Below are positions 28,706-60,365 of a stretch of 64,000 nucleotides of DNA, one piece after another. Positions within the stretch are counted from its first letter, which is position 1; every line of letters starts with the position of its first letter. The stretch is from Hyphomicrobiales bacterium (GTDB lineage Bacteria; Pseudomonadota; Alphaproteobacteria; Rhizobiales; Xanthobacteraceae), in NCBI GenBank assembly GCA_017305715.1, contig JAFKKG010000032.1:1-64000 (forward strand), written 5' to 3'. Under the pieces are notes generated by a model. It ran no database searches and was not told the origin of the DNA. It was given only the letters and a program-made list of their open reading frames with translations. Both the position numbers and the translations under genes were made by a program.

Positions 28706-28797
28706 CGTAGGGTGGGCAAAGGCGCGCTTCGCGCCGTGCCCACCATTTTCATTCGGTGCTTGTGAAGGTGGGCACGCTTCGCTTTGCCCACCCTACG
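28706..28797. repeat. Dispersed long inverted repeat
   Basis: CGTAGGGTGGGCAAAG is inverted as CTTTGCCCACCCTACG about 75 bases later, with an inner pair GTGCCCACC / GGTGGGCAC. It lies between the thiolase and the bifunctional enzyme. The same family recurs at 60274-60365. Confidence 0.8.
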
Positions 28798-48269: not shown

Positions 48270-49196
48270 TCACGTTTTTGACGCCACCGCCACGAGGCCC
48301 GGCACCGGGATGTTGTCTTCGGTGCGCGCCGAGCGATCTTCGAGCAGCGATAATGTGAGGCCGGCCGCCTCCACCGACGCACGAACATGCGCGGCGGCAT
48401 GGGCATAGCGCAGGCCCGCGCCGAGAATCACGCCGTCGCCGCCATGCGTCTCGGTCGTGAAGGCGAACAGGCCGCCGGCGGACAGCACGCGTTGTGCCTC
48501 GATCAGCACCGGCGCGAGATCGGCGACATAGATCATCACGTCGGCCGCCAGGATGAGATCGGCGCTGGCGTCCAGCCTGCCGCGCAGGCCCTGCACGATA
48601 TCGGCGACTTCAAGCTCCGCGTAGAAGCCGGACAGCCGCGCCTTCTCGATCATGCGCGGCGACAGGTCGATGCCGATGAAATGATCGACCTCCCGGGCGA
48701 AGGCGGTCGCGACAAGTCCCGTGCCGCAGCCAAGATCGATCGCACGGTTGAAGAAGGCAGGCTTGCGGGAGGCGGCGCGCACCGACAGCACCGCGCGGAA
48801 CAGCAGTTCCGGGCCGCGGTAACCGAGATCGTCCACCAGTGCGGATTCGAATCGTTTCGCGTACTGATCGAACAGCACCTTCACATATCCTTGCGGCATC
48901 TCGGCCAATGGTTCGGCGCCGAGCCGCATCAGTCGCAGGCTGGCGCCATGGCGGTCGTCGGGATCGCCGGCCCAGGCCTTGCGAAACGCCGCGATCGCCG
49001 CATCGCGTTCACCGAGCGTTTCGCGGATATCGCCGAGCGTGAACCAGGCCGTGACGAAATTGGGCGCCAGTTCCGTTGCCTGCAGCAGCAGGTCGGCTGC
49101 CCCGGCCAGATCGCCTTTCAATTGCAGGTCGCGCGCAAAATCATAGCGGCGATCGGCCATCAGATCGCCGGAGGTCAGGAATATTCGCGTGGGCAT
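48270..49196 (-). CDS. TPR-containing SAM-dependent methyltransferase
   Basis: A 308-residue protein. The N-terminal third has tetratricopeptide-like helices (LQLKGDLAGAADLLLQATELAPNFVTAW and LGERDAAIAAFRKAWAGDPDD, residues about 20-75). The class I methyltransferase domain follows, with motif I AIDLGCGTGLVATAF (about 155-170), acidic FIGIDLSPRMIEKA and ILAADVMIYVADL. Substrate unknown. It starts 51 bp from the divergent exonuclease gene, so the two share a promoter region, but a repair role cannot be concluded. Confidence 0.9.
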   Translation of the reverse strand: MPTRIFLTSGDLMADRRYDFARDLQLKGDLAGAADLLLQATELAPNFVTAWFTLGDIRETLGERDAAIAAFRKAWAGDPDDRHGASLRLMRLGAEPLAEMPQGYVKVLFDQYAKRFESALVDDLGYRGPELLFRAVLSVRAASRKPAFFNRAIDLGCGTGLVATAFAREVDHFIGIDLSPRMIEKARLSGFYAELEVADIVQGLRGRLDASADLILAADVMIYVADLAPVLIEAQRVLSAGGLFAFTTETHGGDGVILGAGLRYAHAAAHVRASVEAAGLTLSLLEDRSARTEDNIPVPGLVAVASKT

Positions 49197-49247
49197 GGGT
49201 TCTATGTGACGGGTAAAAATTGGAGCAATACGTCCTATATAACGAAA

Positions 49248-50285
49248 ATGCGTCCGCAAGACATCCTGCTGCCAGCTCCCGCCGGTTTGTGCTGCAAACC
49301 GGGCGGCTTCCATATCGACCCGGTTCGATCAGTCGAGCGCGCGTTGATCACCCACGGTCATTCCGACCACGCCCGTCCCGGCCATGGCGCGGTGCTGGCG
49401 ACGCAAGAGACGCTCGACATGATGCGGCTGCGCTATGGCGAGAATTTCGCCGGATCGACGCAGGCGATCGCCTATGGCGAGGAAATCAGGCTCGGCGACG
49501 TCACCGTCAAATTCCATCCCGCCGGCCATGTGCTGGGCTCGGCGCAAATCGCCGTCACCTGCAAGAACACCTGCATCGTCGCCTCGGGCGACTACAAGGA
49601 CGCAACCGATCCGACCTGCAAGCCGTTCGAAGTGATGCCCTGCGACGTCTTCATCACCGAAGCAACGTTCGGCTTGCCGGTGTTCCGCCATGGCAACGCC
49701 GCGGATGAGGTGAAGAAGCTGCTGGCCTCGGTGGCGCTGTTCCCGGAACGCGCGCATCTGGTCGGCGCCTATTCGCTCGGCAAGGGGCAGCGCGTCATCG
49801 CGCTGCTGCGCGAGGCCGGTTACGACGCGCCGATCTATTTGCACGGCGCGATGGAAGAGATCACCTATTATTATCAAAGCCGCGGCATCACCCTCGGCGA
49901 GCTGCGCCCGGCGAAGGGCATGAAGAAGGCCGATCTCGCCGGCACCATCACGCTGGCGCCGCCGTCGGCGACATCCGACATCTGGACGCGGCGTTTTCCC
50001 GATCCGGTCACCGCGTTTGCCTCGGGCTGGATGCGGGTGCGGGCCCGTGCCCGGCAGCGCGGCATCGAATTGCCGCTGGTGATTTCCGACCACGCCGACT
50101 GGGACGGCCTGACCGCGACCATCGAAGCCACCGGCGCCGGCGAAATCTGGGTCACGCACGGCCAGGAGGATGCGCTGGTGCATTGGTGCAAGACAAAAGG
50201 TCTTGCCGCACGGCCGCTCGATCTCGTCGGTTACGGCGATGAGGACGAGCACGAGGCCCCGCAAAAAGGTGAGGCCGAGGCATGA
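49248..50285 (+). CDS. Ligase-associated DNA repair exonuclease (MBL/beta-CASP)
   Basis: A 345-residue nuclease of the metallo-beta-lactamase/beta-CASP group. The metal motif is ITHGHSDHARPGH (His36, His38, Asp40, His41). Further ligands lie in PAGHVLGSAQI and ASGDYKD, and VISDHADWDGL is the beta-CASP end. It matches the ligase-associated exonuclease (TIGR04122 type) that processes DNA ends before sealing by the ligase. Its stop overlaps the ligase start by 4 bp (ATGA), so the pair is co-translated. The helicase and PdeM partners are 3-6 kb upstream on the other strand. Confidence 0.93.
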   Translation: MRPQDILLPAPAGLCCKPGGFHIDPVRSVERALITHGHSDHARPGHGAVLATQETLDMMRLRYGENFAGSTQAIAYGEEIRLGDVTVKFHPAGHVLGSAQIAVTCKNTCIVASGDYKDATDPTCKPFEVMPCDVFITEATFGLPVFRHGNAADEVKKLLASVALFPERAHLVGAYSLGKGQRVIALLREAGYDAPIYLHGAMEEITYYYQSRGITLGELRPAKGMKKADLAGTITLAPPSATSDIWTRRFPDPVTAFASGWMRVRARARQRGIELPLVISDHADWDGLTATIEATGAGEIWVTHGQEDALVHWCKTKGLAARPLDLVGYGDEDEHEAPQKGEAEA

Positions 50286-52144
50286 ACCGCTTCGCCGAAC
50301 TATTGGATCGACTCGCCTATGAGCCCGGCCGCAACAACAAGCTGCGGCTGATCACGGCGTATTTTCGCGACACACCCGATCCCGACCGCGGCTACGCGCT
50401 GGCGGCACTGACCGGCGCGCTGTCGTTCAAGCACGCCAAGCCCGGCTTGATCCGCGACCTGATCACCGATCGCACCGATCCCGTGCTGTTCGGGTTGTCG
50501 TATGATTATGTCGGGGATCTCTCGGAGACGGTGGCGCTGATGTGGCCGAAGGGCGCGGTCCATCGTGATGAACCTTTGCTGGGCCACCCCTCTCCCCGGC
50601 CCTCCCCCGCAAGGGGGGAGGGAGCCGAGCGGAATGCGGGGCAATCATCTCGAACAGAATCTAAAGCCGCCGCAACAACTCTCGCCGTTCCCTCCCCCCT
50701 TGCGGGGGAGGGTCAGGGAGAGGGGTATCACACGGGTGGCGCCGATGATGATCCACGCCGCTCCGGCCACAACAACCCTCCGCCGCCTACACTCACCGAA
50801 GTCGTCACCACCCTCCGCACGCTCGGCAAGACCGAACTGCCAAAACAGCTCGCGCGCTGGCTTGATGAGCTCGACGAGACCGGCCGCTGGGCGCTGCTAA
50901 AGCTCGTCACCGGCGCGATGCGGATCGGGGTTTCGGCGCGGCTGGCCAAGACCGCCGCGGCCCATCTCGGCGACAAGGACGCCCACGACATCGAGCTGAT
51001 GTGGCCGGGATTGAGTCCGCCCTATCTCGACCTGTTCGCCTGGCTGGAAGGCCGCAGTGAAAAGCCCGTCAATCGCGATCCGACCCCGTTCCGCCCGGTG
51101 ATGCTGGCGCACGCGATCGAGGAGGCGGATTTTGCGGGCCTCGACGCTGCCGACTTCATCGCCGAATGGAAATGGGACGGCATCCGCGTGCAGGCGGTCG
51201 CCGGCCGTGACGAACGCGGCCATATCCAGGCGCGGCTCTATTCGCGTACGGGGGAAGACATCACCAAGAGTTTTCCCGACCTCGTACCGTCGCTGCATCT
51301 CCCCGGCGCCATCGACGGCGAATTGCTGGTGCTGCGCGAGGGCCGTGTGCAGACCTTCAACGTGCTGCAACAGCGCCTCAACCGCAAAGTGGTGTCGCCC
51401 AAACTGATCAAGGAGTACCCGATCCACTTGCGCGCCTATGATCTGCTCGGCGACGACGAGAACGATCTGCGCGAGCTGCCGTTCATCGAACGCCGCGCGC
51501 GGCTGGAAGCCTTCGTCAAGAAGCTCGACGATGTCAGGATCGATCTGTCGCCGACGGTCGCCTTCGACAGTTGGGAGCAGCTCGCCGGCGCGCGCGCCAA
51601 TCCGGCCCAGGCCGGCGCGGGCGCGGATGCCGACGCCGTCGAGGGCGTGATGCTCAAGCGCCGCGACGCGGCGTATCTGCCGGGCCGGCCCAAGGGGCAA
51701 TGGTGGAAGTGGAAGCGCGACCCGCATCTGATCGATGCGGTCCTGATGTATGCGCAGCGCGGCCACGGCAAGCGCTCGTCCTATTATTCGGACTACACGT
51801 TCGGCGTCTGGACCTCCGGCGAGGGCGGCGAGGAGCTGGTGCCGGTCGGCAAGGCCTATTTCGGCTTCACCGACGAGGAGCTGCTGCAGATCGACCGCTT
51901 CGTCCGCCGCAACACGACCGAGAAATTCGGCCCCGTGCGCCATGTCGTGCACGAGCCCGACCAGGGGCTGGTGCTGGAAGTCGCCTTCGAGGGGCTGGCG
52001 CGCTCGCCGCGGCACAAATCCGGCGTCGCGATGCGGTTCCCGCGAATCAGCCGGCTGCGCTGGGACAAGCCGCCGCGCGAGGCCGACCGGCTGGAAACGC
52101 TGGAACGCATGCTGAAAAGCGACGCCAGTATTACCGCGCCTTAA
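50282..52144 (+). CDS. ATP-dependent DNA ligase of the ligase-associated repair module
   Basis: A 620-residue ligase. Adenylation motif I is EWKWDGIRV with nucleophile Lys297. Motif III lies in LPGAIDGELLVL, and motif V is in EGVMLKRRDAAY followed by KGQWWKWKR. An N-terminal DNA-binding domain and a C-terminal OB domain flank it. Residues about 93-160 (from AVHRDEPLLGHPSPRPSP) do not fit the family; 47 codons of them (50586-50726) are a complete inverted pair of palindromic repeats. The insertion is in a surface linker of the DNA-binding domain, so activity may survive. Co-translated with the exonuclease. Confidence 0.93.
   Translation: MNRFAELLDRLAYEPGRNNKLRLITAYFRDTPDPDRGYALAALTGALSFKHAKPGLIRDLITDRTDPVLFGLSYDYVGDLSETVALMWPKGAVHRDEPLLGHPSPRPSPARGEGAERNAGQSSRTESKAAATTLAVPSPLAGEGQGEGYHTGGADDDPRRSGHNNPPPPTLTEVVTTLRTLGKTELPKQLARWLDELDETGRWALLKLVTGAMRIGVSARLAKTAAAHLGDKDAHDIELMWPGLSPPYLDLFAWLEGRSEKPVNRDPTPFRPVMLAHAIEEADFAGLDAADFIAEWKWDGIRVQAVAGRDERGHIQARLYSRTGEDITKSFPDLVPSLHLPGAIDGELLVLREGRVQTFNVLQQRLNRKVVSPKLIKEYPIHLRAYDLLGDDENDLRELPFIERRARLEAFVKKLDDVRIDLSPTVAFDSWEQLAGARANPAQAGAGADADAVEGVMLKRRDAAYLPGRPKGQWWKWKRDPHLIDAVLMYAQRGHGKRSSYYSDYTFGVWTSGEGGEELVPVGKAYFGFTDEELLQIDRFVRRNTTEKFGPVRHVVHEPDQGLVLEVAFEGLARSPRHKSGVAMRFPRISRLRWDKPPREADRLETLERMLKSDASITAP
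50586..50726. repeat. Inverted repeat pair (BIME-like) inside the ligase gene
   Basis: The 38-base unit at 50586-50623 (ACCCCTCTCCCCGGCCCTCC and on) recurs inverted at 50689-50726 with only three mismatches. Each unit also has its own CCTCCCCCGCAAGGGGGGAGG hairpin. The whole is 141 bp, exactly 47 codons, with no stop in the ligase frame. Confidence 0.85.
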
Positions 52145-58295: not shown

Positions 58296-58437
58296 GCGTC
58301 CGCTCCCACTATGGCCTGCCCCTCGACGGGGGCTTGATGGTGGAGTGTAGCGTAATTTGCCACCGGCCGCGGCTGAAATTGCCGTAGGCCTGCCATGAGG
58401 ATTTGCGGCTCAGGGTCGCAGGAGGGGACGCTACCGC

Positions 58438-58577
58438 TTCTTCCCTTCTCCCCTTGTGGGAGAAGGTGGATCGCCGACGCGAAGCGGCGGCGAGACGGAT
58501 GAGGGGTATGTCTCCGCGGATAGAGACCCCTCATCCGGCGCTTCGCGCCACCTTCTCCCACAAGGGGAGAAGGAAGA
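58438..58577. repeat. Large inverted repeat pair (BIME-like)
   Basis: CTTCCCTTCTCCCCTTGTGG with GGATGAGGGGTATGTCTCCG on the left is inverted as the ACCCCTCATCC and CACAAGGGGAGAAGGAAG on the right. It ends 4 bp before the lysyl-tRNA synthetase stop. This is the family seen in part at 48187-48264. Confidence 0.85.
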
Positions 58578-58580
58578 AAG

Positions 58581-60224
58581 CTACGCACTCCTCGCCAGCG
58601 CGCCGTCGATCATCGCGACCGCGTTGGCGAGACCATACACCGCGACGAACGAGCCGAAGCGCGGGCCTTTTTCCTGGCCGAGCAGCACCTGGTATAGCAT
58701 GTTGAACCAGTCGAGCGAGACGCCGGGACGGCCGTCCTTGCCCTTCTTGACGGGATCGAGGAACGGCTCGCGACGGCCTATCTCGTAGACCACGTTCTGG
58801 ATGTCTTCCGCCGTCGCGGCCGCGGGCAGTTGCGACAGTGCATCGCGCAGATCCTGCAAGGCGGCGCGCTCGCCGTCGGTCGGCTCGCGGAATTTTTTCG
58901 TCGGCGCCACGAAGTCGCGATAATAATTGATGGCGTAGCCGACCAGGGCGTCGAGCTTCGGGTGCGTCTGCGGCGTGACGCCGGGCCGGTAGCGGCCGAT
59001 AAAGCCCCACAGCGTTTCGGCATTCTCCGCATTCGACGACGACACCAGCGTCAGCAGCAACTGGAACGTGACCGGCATGTCGCCCTTCGGCGGCCGGCCG
59101 GCATGCATGTGCCAGACCGGATTGGCGAGCTGCTGCTTGGCGTCCTGGCGCGGGAATCCGTCGAGGAATTGCTGATAGTCGTCGACGTTGCGCGGGATCA
59201 CGTCGAAATGCAGCCGCTTGGCCGCCTTCGGCTCGCGGTACATGAACAGCGACAGCGATTCCGGCGAGGCATAGCGCAGCCATTCGTCGATCGTGAGCCC
59301 GTTGCCCTTCGACTTCGAAATCTTCTGGCCGTTCTCGTCGAGGAACAGTTCGTAGTTGAATCCTTCCGGCGGCGTGCCGCCGAGCGCCCTGGCGATCGGG
59401 CCCGAAAGCTTCACCGAGTCGATCAGGTCCTTGCCCGCCATCTCGTAGTCGACGCCGAGCGCGACCCAGCGCATCGCCCAGTCGGCCTTCCACTGGCACT
59501 TCACATGGCCGCCTGTCACCGGGGTTTCGACCTCCGCGCCGGTGTCCGGATCAATATAGGTGATGGTGCCGGCAGCGACGTCGCGCCGGATCATCGGCAC
59601 CTGCAGCACGACACCGGTGGTCGGGCTGATGGGAAGGAACGGCGAATAGGTCGCGCGCCGGTCCGGCCCCAGTGTCGGCAGGATGATCGCCATCACCTTG
59701 TCGTAGACGGCGAGCATCTTGAGCAGCGTCGCGTCGAAGCGGCCTGACGTGTAGTAATCGGTCGCGCTGGCGAATTCATAGTCGAAGCCGAAATGATCGA
59801 GGAACGCGCGAAGGCGCGCGTTGTTGGCCGCACCGAACGACGGATATTCGTTCGAGAACGGATCCGGCACGCGCGTCAGCGGCTTGCCGAGATGGGCCGC
59901 CATCATGTCGCGGTTGGGCACGTTATCAGGCACCTTGCGCAGCCCATCCATGTCGTCGGAGAACGCCAGCAGCCTGGTCTTGATCTTGTCCTCGGTCAGC
60001 ACGCGAAACGCATGGCGCACCATGGTGGTGCGCGCGACCTCGCCGAACGTGCCGATATGCGGCAGCCCCGACGGACCGTAGCCGGTCTCGAACAGCACCT
60101 CGTCCTTTGGCGCCTTTTTCAGCCGCGCGACAATCGCCTTCGCCTGCTCGAACGGCCAGGCGTTGGATTGTTCGGCGAGCGCACGTAGATCGCTCGGGTT
60201 CGCAGCAAGGTCGGTGGTGGACAT
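58581..60224 (-). CDS. lysK: Lysyl-tRNA synthetase, class I
   Basis: A 547-residue class I LysRS, the archaeal-type enzyme also found in many Alphaproteobacteria in place of class II. The HIGH box is HIGT at residues 56-59 ([11 protein letters not shown]). The KMSKS box is [10 protein letters not shown] near residue 300, and a C-terminal helical anticodon-binding cage follows. It charges tRNA-Lys in the cytoplasm. ATG 60224 is the family start. Its stop abuts the large inverted repeat. Confidence 0.96.
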
Positions 60225-60273: not shown

Positions 60274-60365
60274 TCGTAGGGTGGGCAAAGCGAAGCGTGC
60301 CCACCACGACGTTCAGCGAGTAAGGTGGTGGGCACGGCGCAGCTGCGCCTTTGCCCACCCTACGA
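60274..60365. repeat. Dispersed long inverted repeat
   Basis: TCGTAGGGTGGGCAAAGCGA at the left and TTTGCCCACCCTACGA at the right, with inner GTGCCCACCA / TGGTGGGCAC. Same family as 28706-28797. It fills the gap between the binding protein and lysK. Confidence 0.85.

What the first reader, a model, noticed from the sequence alone, without database searches (positions are those of the whole stretch)
50586..50726. A 141-bp inverted pair of palindromic repeats lies in-frame inside the DNA ligase gene
Two 38-base units in inverted orientation, each with its own hairpin, form a full BIME-like element of the class normally found between genes. It is exactly 47 codons with no stop and adds a Pro/Gly/Arg-rich segment to the N-terminal DNA-binding domain, before catalytic Lys297. 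This recalls Rickettsia palindromic elements, but in a free-living alphaproteobacterium.
Basis: seen in the sequence. Interest (0 to 1): 0.75.

Follow-up and report, generated by a model that had tools for sequence, protein, structure and literature searches.

The report
Recurrent palindromic repeats inside DNA ligase
A floppy loop in a bacterial DNA-repair ligase has repeatedly been colonised, in frame, by different short palindromic repeats that normally sit between genes, so part of this protein seems to be spelled out by parasitic DNA rather than by the protein's own history.

Summary
In detail: window 50586-50726 is two 38-nt units, 36/38 complementary, stop-free, inside a LigB-type ATP-dependent DNA ligase. 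The unit is a genomic REP (29 exact cores in this genome). The net insert is 201 nt: one sister species lacks it, another carries a different pair in the same loop. Of 128 readable family ligases, 69 loops are empty, 54 hold repeat-like inserts (seven types by eye, four BLAST groups) and 5 are other; 52 of the 54 are in frame. With weak branches collapsed the tree still needs 13 presence changes and 18 group changes. The ligase's repeat variant matches the genome's majority variant in 15 of 15 informative genomes, altering encoded residues. The loop is predicted disordered; both flanks are constrained. An ImuB-like repair protein has a second such loop. In-frame REPs in repair genes, a DNA ligase included, were published in 2013 (PMC3733652). 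One loop recolonised this often was not listed by searches. Best reading: tolerated selfish DNA.

The parts
50282..52144 (+). ATP-dependent DNA ligase gene (LigB type; TIGR04120 'cisplatin damage response ATP-dependent DNA ligase'), 620 aa
   Evidence: TIGR04120 810 bits over residues 3-611; Pfam DNA_ligase_A_M and A_C above cut-off, A_N below its cut-off
50555..50764 (+). variable linker that holds the insert (about residues 92-161, borders approximate); net 201 nt more than the empty-site orthologue
   Evidence: linker after residue 95 is 210 nt in the window; in G243 (L112) it is 15 nt after residue 93; residues 93-164 pLDDT < 50
50586..50623 (+). REP unit 1 (38 nt), read as PSPRPSPARGEG
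50624..50688 (+). 65-nt spacer between the two units
50689..50726 (-). REP unit 2 (inverted copy of unit 1), read on + as PSPLAGEGQGEG
48387..50285 (+). ORF whose residues 295-619 match the ligase-associated DNA damage response exonuclease (TIGR04122), directly upstream; its stop overlaps the ligase start (true start of the gene not determined)

Best explanation
The 141-nt pair is a copy of a mobile or copying REP (BIME-like) element that landed in frame in a disordered loop of the helical DNA-binding domain of a LigB-type repair ligase. The loop tolerates extra residues, so stop-free insertions whose length keeps the frame survive there and the rest are mostly lost. The same loop has therefore been filled, emptied and refilled many times by REP families present in each lineage, and resident copies keep changing with the genome's REP population (new insertion or gene conversion). 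The Pro/Gly/Arg segment is a by-product of the DNA element. Shown: repeat identity, multicopy state, in-frame state, recurrence at one loop, match to the genome's REP variant, purifying selection on both flanks. Inferred: movement by a REP transposase or conversion, that the protein is made with the segment, and that the segment is close to neutral for the enzyme.
For: Multicopy at home: 83 matches (both strands of a palindrome counted) at about 26 places grouped by hand (40 of 41 candidates scored), 29 exact cores with the ligase's two included. Empty site: 69 of 128 readable family ligases have a linker of 39 nt or less. Different elements at one loop: 54 of 128, by eye A 23, E 11, B 10, D 4, C 3, F 2, G 1; 5 other. 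Own genome v comparison, counts including the query place and both strands: B 13 v 3 in the window's genome, E 58 v 20, D 10 v 0, F 65 v 11; C 15 in G184 v 2 and 1 in two other Bradyrhizobium. Window (A), G184 (C), G243 (empty) form a 97-supported clade. Tree changes: 27 presence/33 type; with branches under 95 collapsed 13/21, and 18 for the four BLAST groups. Ligase and genome REP variant agree in 15 of 15 informative of 16 genomes (Fisher 1.6e-4 ignoring kinship). Flanks: w 0.035-0.095 in 21 listed pairs, 0-0.146 upstream in 13. Residues 93-164 pLDDT < 50.
Against: No protein or RNA data. Type A starts 38-42 nt into the linker in all 23, so within Bradyrhizobium it may be one old insertion with losses and concerted change rather than many insertions. 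BLAST clustering at 50% coverage merged A with B, and C with D and E, so the eye-made types are partly related; short cores of type C also match 4 to 37 times in six genomes of other genera. Gains and losses are not separated, and recombination of the linker alone would inflate the tree counts. Pooled pN/pS upstream is higher in carriers (0.25 v 0.15) and so is median w overall (0.152 v 0.120); carriers span more genera, but some relaxation cannot be excluded. 13 of 54 inserts do not beat all 50 shuffles for inverted repeats. No REP transposase was looked for.
Confidence: 0.85

Rival explanations
1. Exaptation: the Pro/Gly/Arg linker is kept because it changes the reach or partners of the ligase's DNA-binding domain, perhaps altering repair or mutation rate, as PMC3733652 speculates for REP-tagged repair proteins.
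For: Many inserts in one loop, and a second repair protein (ImuB-like) with the same habit; repair genes stand out among published intragenic REPs.
Against: Encoded peptides differ in type, frame and length (linkers of carriers 57-318 nt); residues follow the genome's REP variant; 69 of 128 family ligases do without; the segment is predicted disordered.
Confidence: 0.12
2. The nucleic-acid hairpin, not the peptide, is selected: a stable mRNA or DNA structure inside the gene slows translation or tunes expression of the ligase.
For: z -9 fold; the two units of one gene are better matched than units of different genes (63 of 10,000 shuffles reach the observed mean; 15 of 23 type A used); the loop letters of the two units agree in 14 of 15.
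Against: Matched units are also expected from insertion of whole matched pairs or from conversion with genomic copies; single-unit or remnant linkers exist (L150, L201, L220, L230).
Confidence: 0.12
3. Sequence-targeted hot spot: the element's transposase prefers this DNA site, rather than selection filtering out other sites.
For: High recurrence at one loop; C-rich native codons near the site.
Against: By a simple pattern the first C-run of the insert begins anywhere from 3 to 89 nt into the linker, except type A at 38-42; repeats of four BLAST groups use it; a different loop in the ImuB-like protein is used too.
Confidence: 0.1
4. Ancestral protein sequence, or an assembly or annotation artefact.
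For: Similar-looking Pro/Gly segments occur in several genera.
Against: Segments are multicopy DNA repeats, absent from close orthologues, and present in many separate assemblies.
Confidence: 0.02

Closest known systems
Intragenic REPs of the 2013 survey of GTAG- and CGTC-tagged repeats (PMC3733652)
   Same: REP dimers in frame inside genes of free-living bacteria, many in DNA repair genes, a DNA ligase of Opitutus terrae named; different REPs at about the same site of recB in two Xanthomonas species (sections 11, 15, 17 part 1 and passages read)
   Different: Their families carry a GTAG or CGTC tag, not seen beside this unit; the main text has 'ligase' once (O. terrae) and 'ImuB' not at all; no many-fold recolonisation of one loop, or match to the genome's variant, in the text read (Additional file 3 not seen)
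Rickettsia palindromic elements (RPE)
   Same: Multicopy palindromic element of about 150 bp, in frame in unrelated genes (passages of review PMC10969869; original papers recalled, not read; PMC186582 not held)
   Different: Soil bacterium, not an obligate intracellular one; GC-rich REP pair; no sequence relationship to RPE tested
REPIN / BIME
   Same: Two REP units in inverted orientation, dispersed and multicopy
   Different: No associated RAYT transposase was sought; by hand count at least 10 of about 26 genomic places hold the opposite dimer with about 26 nt between units, while two others share the ligase's order with 74-81 nt
Enterobacterial RU-1/2/3 intragenic repeat units (PMC2759123, abstract and outline seen)
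   Same: Small mobile repeats whose open frames are part of proteins
   Different: Other sequences and hosts; no recurrent loop mentioned in the abstract

Membership tests
REP/BIME-type repeat | short palindromic unit, multicopy, dispersed | tested here: met
   29 exact cores, about 26 places in the genome
REP/BIME-type repeat | units paired in inverted orientation | tested here: met
   genomic pairs
REP/BIME-type repeat | mostly between genes | tested here: inconclusive
   About 26 places: 2 shown inside a conserved gene (ligase, ImuB-like). Of 19 long covering ORFs chosen by hand and scanned, the rest had no Pfam family or a domain only beyond the repeat; not every covering ORF was scanned
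GTAG/CGTC superfamilies (PMC3733652) | GTAG or CGTC tag at one end of the unit | tested here: not met
   No GTAG or CGTC adjoins either unit (read by eye)
REPIN | mobilised by a RAYT transposase | not tested
Rickettsia palindromic element | in-frame insertion that leaves the host gene open | tested here: met
Rickettsia palindromic element | sequence of a Rickettsia RPE family | not tested
   no RPE sequence compared; Rfam gave only matches far below the gathering scores
LigB-type repair ligase | TIGR04120 equivalog above cut-off, with associated exonuclease next to it | tested here: met
   810 v cut-off 400; TIGR04122 upstream 472 v 325

The most novel reading that the evidence does not exclude
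Palindromic REP pairs are an exchangeable, recurrently selected module of accessory DNA-damage genes: in the LigB ligase and in an ImuB-like polymerase homologue the same loops are refilled again and again because a hairpin-forming element inside the gene (as DNA or mRNA) makes its expression sensitive to the genome's REP machinery or to DNA damage, while the peptide itself is irrelevant.
Probability: 0.1. Interest if true: 0.85.

Novelty: new variant of a known kind. Interest (0 to 1): 0.62.

Why it matters
It gives a natural, replicated experiment on how selfish palindromes become protein sequence: one loop, many insertions, losses and replacements, close relatives with the empty site, and a genus that can be cultured. 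It indicates that residues inside a conserved enzyme can be dictated by the evolution of a genomic repeat population. It also makes testable why repair genes turn up so often among REP-carrying genes.

Tried and rejected
Rfam: only eukaryotic miRNA and frameshift-element models far below their gathering scores. Ancestral protein segment: rejected. Target-site duplication: GGCCAC stands before unit 1 and before the native HNN codons, but GCCAC precedes the unit at other genomic copies too, so it is not claimed. One exact insertion point for all types: rejected except within type A. BLAST clustering as a type definition: coarser than the eye-made types, so tree counts are given both ways. Pooled selection measures: confounded by sampling, told under evidence against. 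That survey: 130 of 249 matching genomes of 291 searched; 128 readable, L117 and L227 dropped for a missing N-terminal part; among other genera I chose rows by hand from the listed ones, so the share there is not a random estimate.

Full report
Observation. The two 38-nt units, their inverted orientation, the 65-nt spacer and the open frame are as described. The pair folds back on itself as one long hairpin with a z-score of -9. The gene is a LigB-type ATP-dependent DNA ligase (TIGR04120, 810 bits) directly after a ligase-associated exonuclease (TIGR04122). [quoted passage not shown]

The unit is a genomic repeat. In the window's genome (G000, 7.45 Mb, 51 contigs) the pair gives 83 matches at E <= 0.01, with both strands of a palindrome counted (40 of 41 candidates scored). 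I grouped them by hand into about 26 places. Its 23-nt core occurs 29 times exactly, the two ligase copies included. By hand count at least 10 places hold the opposite dimer with about 26 nt between units; two others (C36 and C28:40.4 kb) have the ligase's order with 74-81 nt. Two of the places lie inside a conserved gene: the ligase, and an ORF with Pfam IMS domains whose N-terminal motif is shared by relatives. I call that protein ImuB-like; the name is my inference from Pfam IMS and a recalled motif, and NCBIfam gives only sub-threshold DNA polymerase IV hits. Nineteen long ORFs over repeats, chosen by hand, were scanned; apart from the IMS one they had no Pfam family or a domain only beyond the repeat, so they are not shown to be coding across it.

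Empty and refilled sites. A family survey searched 291 genomes; 249 had the ligase. I took 130 loci (30 by default, 100 chosen by hand) and 128 had both halves readable. The linker between ALMWPK and HNNPPPPTL is 39 nt or shorter in 69; 54 carry repeat-like inserts, 5 are other. In the window's genus 30 of 72 carry one (A 23, B 5, C 2); in other genera 24 of 56, with 5 other and 27 empty. Type labels are mine, from peptide and DNA; BLAST at 50% coverage gives four groups among them (A+B, C+D+E, F, G). Three of the 128 are out of frame: L134, L216 and L233, the last with runs of N; L216 is in the 'other' class, so 52 of 54 inserts are in frame. L206 has an internal stop outside the linker. The window (type A), G184 (type C) and G243 (empty) form one clade with 97% support, and one search shows the three linkers side by side.

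The inserts are repeats at home. Type C has near-full copies in G184 (89, 87, 83% over 144-152 nt, among 15 matches that include the ligase place and both strands) and only 2 and 1 matches in two other Bradyrhizobium; its short core also matches 4 to 37 times in six genomes of other genera, so the cores are shared more widely than the whole elements. Types B, E, D and F give 13, 58, 10 and 65 matches in their own genomes and 3, 20, 0 and 11 in the window's genome (in three of these calls only 40 candidates were scored, so counts are lower bounds). Type G and the 5 'other' linkers were not tested. Some inserts carry a further palindrome nested inside a unit: the same one in L120, L122, L125 and L126, others in L122, L134 and L177; the shared one also sits in genomic copies L012, L019 and L029.

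How often. On a quick tree of the ligase without its linker (128 rows, 540 columns, LG+G4) presence changes 27 times and type 33 times, the 5 'other' rows not counted; with branches under 80, 90 or 95 collapsed the minima are 24/31, 15/23 and 13/21. With the four BLAST groups in place of my types they are 30 uncollapsed and 29, 20 and 18 collapsed. Leaving out L134, L233 and L206 gives 17 group and 13 presence changes at 95. This is one gene tree, gains and losses are not separated, and recombination of the linker alone could inflate the counts. Type A begins 38-42 nt into the linker in all 23 while the other types begin at 3-89 nt, so A may be one old insertion with repeated loss, whereas the others need separate events.

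Concerted evolution. Type A units come with loop GCAA (encoding Ala in both units) or ACAA (encoding Thr and Val). In 14 of 15 pairs with unambiguous arms the two units agree; L147 does not (8 of 23 type A rows were dropped because my pattern did not match them cleanly). I then counted exact cores of both kinds in 16 of the 23 type A genomes, chosen by hand. ACAA/GCAA counts in ACAA-ligase genomes: G255 29/0, G225 18/2, G278 16/0, G276 7/0, G254 12/0, G237 12/3, G257 27/0, G263 0/0. In GCAA-ligase genomes: G000 0/29, G109 0/24, G228 13/27, G282 0/25, G261 1/22, G268 0/6, G284 0/2, G247 0/4. The majority variant agrees with the ligase in 15 of 15 informative genomes. The counts include the ligase's own units, so the small numbers (G284, G247, G276, G268) are weak. 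Kinship makes the Fisher value of 1.6e-4 optimistic. The point stands: the coding copy follows the genomic repeat population although that changes amino acids.

The protein. AlphaFold2 on a 40-row alignment gives mean pLDDT 80.3; residues 93-164 are the only long stretch under 50, between helices 80-87 and 171-180 of the N-terminal helical domain. The best Foldseek matches are ATP-dependent DNA ligases of archaea and human. For 21 listed near pairs dN/dS outside the linker is 0.035-0.095 with or without insert; for 84 codons upstream it is 0-0.146 in 13 listed pairs, 0.017 for window against the empty sister. So sequence on both sides of the insert is under selection as protein, which argues that the insert is read through. 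Pooled figures are less tidy: 0.25 against 0.15 upstream and median 0.152 against 0.120 overall for carriers and non-carriers; the groups differ in genera, and mild relaxation is possible.

Wider sampling. Outside the family, 3 of 22 loci among the best of an order-level search (L277, L281, L286) have palindromic pairs in the same loop and L283 a partial one; whether these are multicopy at home was not tested. One ligase from each of 20 further families gave 0 of 20 with a linker over 45 nt. In the ImuB-like protein, repeat-type inserts sit in the loop after LPRLPxDR in 5 of 30 family loci and in 22 of 29 best-scoring genus loci (biased towards the window's relatives, L343 partly N; judged by peptide, with inverted-repeat scores). 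Multicopy origin was shown there only for the window's own genome.

Known and new. PMC3733652 (abstract passages, sections 11, 15 and 17 part 1 read; supplement not seen) reports in-frame REPs in many species, a bias to replication and repair genes, a REP in a DNA ligase of Opitutus terrae, and different REPs at about the same site of recB in two Xanthomonas. PMC10969869 (passages) reviews Rickettsia elements; PMC2759123 (abstract and outline) reports enterobacterial cases; PMC5082802 (passages) describes other Bradyrhizobium REPs; PMC8266576 (passages) treats REP recognition by TnpA-REP. Searches listed no paper whose title or abstract start concerns this ligase loop or an ImuB loop; the library holds open-licence papers only. 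I therefore rate it a new variant of a known kind: the same class of event, but recurrent at one loop on a family scale and changing in concert with the genome's repeats.

Noticed in passing
L016 / G000:C1:180956-181062 (minus-strand ORF): A second in-frame REP pair in the same genome, in an ImuB-like Y-family polymerase homologue; many Bradyrhizobium relatives carry various repeat pairs in the same loop.
   Followed up: partly
L120, L122, L125, L126 (others in L122, L134, L177), ligase linkers: Further short palindromes nested inside a REP unit, still in frame except in L134; the piece shared by the first four occurs in genomic copies L012, L019, L029.
   Followed up: partly
L134, L216, L233, L206: Four family ligases are not intact as read: three with the linker out of frame (L233 with runs of N) and L206 with an internal stop outside the linker; sequencing error or decay not separated.
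   Followed up: no
L245 and L250, ImuB-like linker: A different repeat-like peptide (AFSSEVGxGSREENAS) sits in the same loop in a Bradyrhizobium and in another genus; whether its DNA is multicopy was not tested.
   Followed up: no
window 58436-58469 and 58548-58581: Another inverted palindromic pair (34 nt, 91% complementary, 78 nt apart) ending at the stop end of the ORF 58581-60224 on the minus strand.
   Followed up: partly
window 28767-28797 and 60275-60305: A 31-nt repeat with perfectly complementary copies 31 kb apart, a different repeat family.
   Followed up: no
L277, L281, L286 (other families of the order): Palindromic pairs in the same ligase loop outside the window's family; L281 appears to hold three units.
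   Followed up: partly
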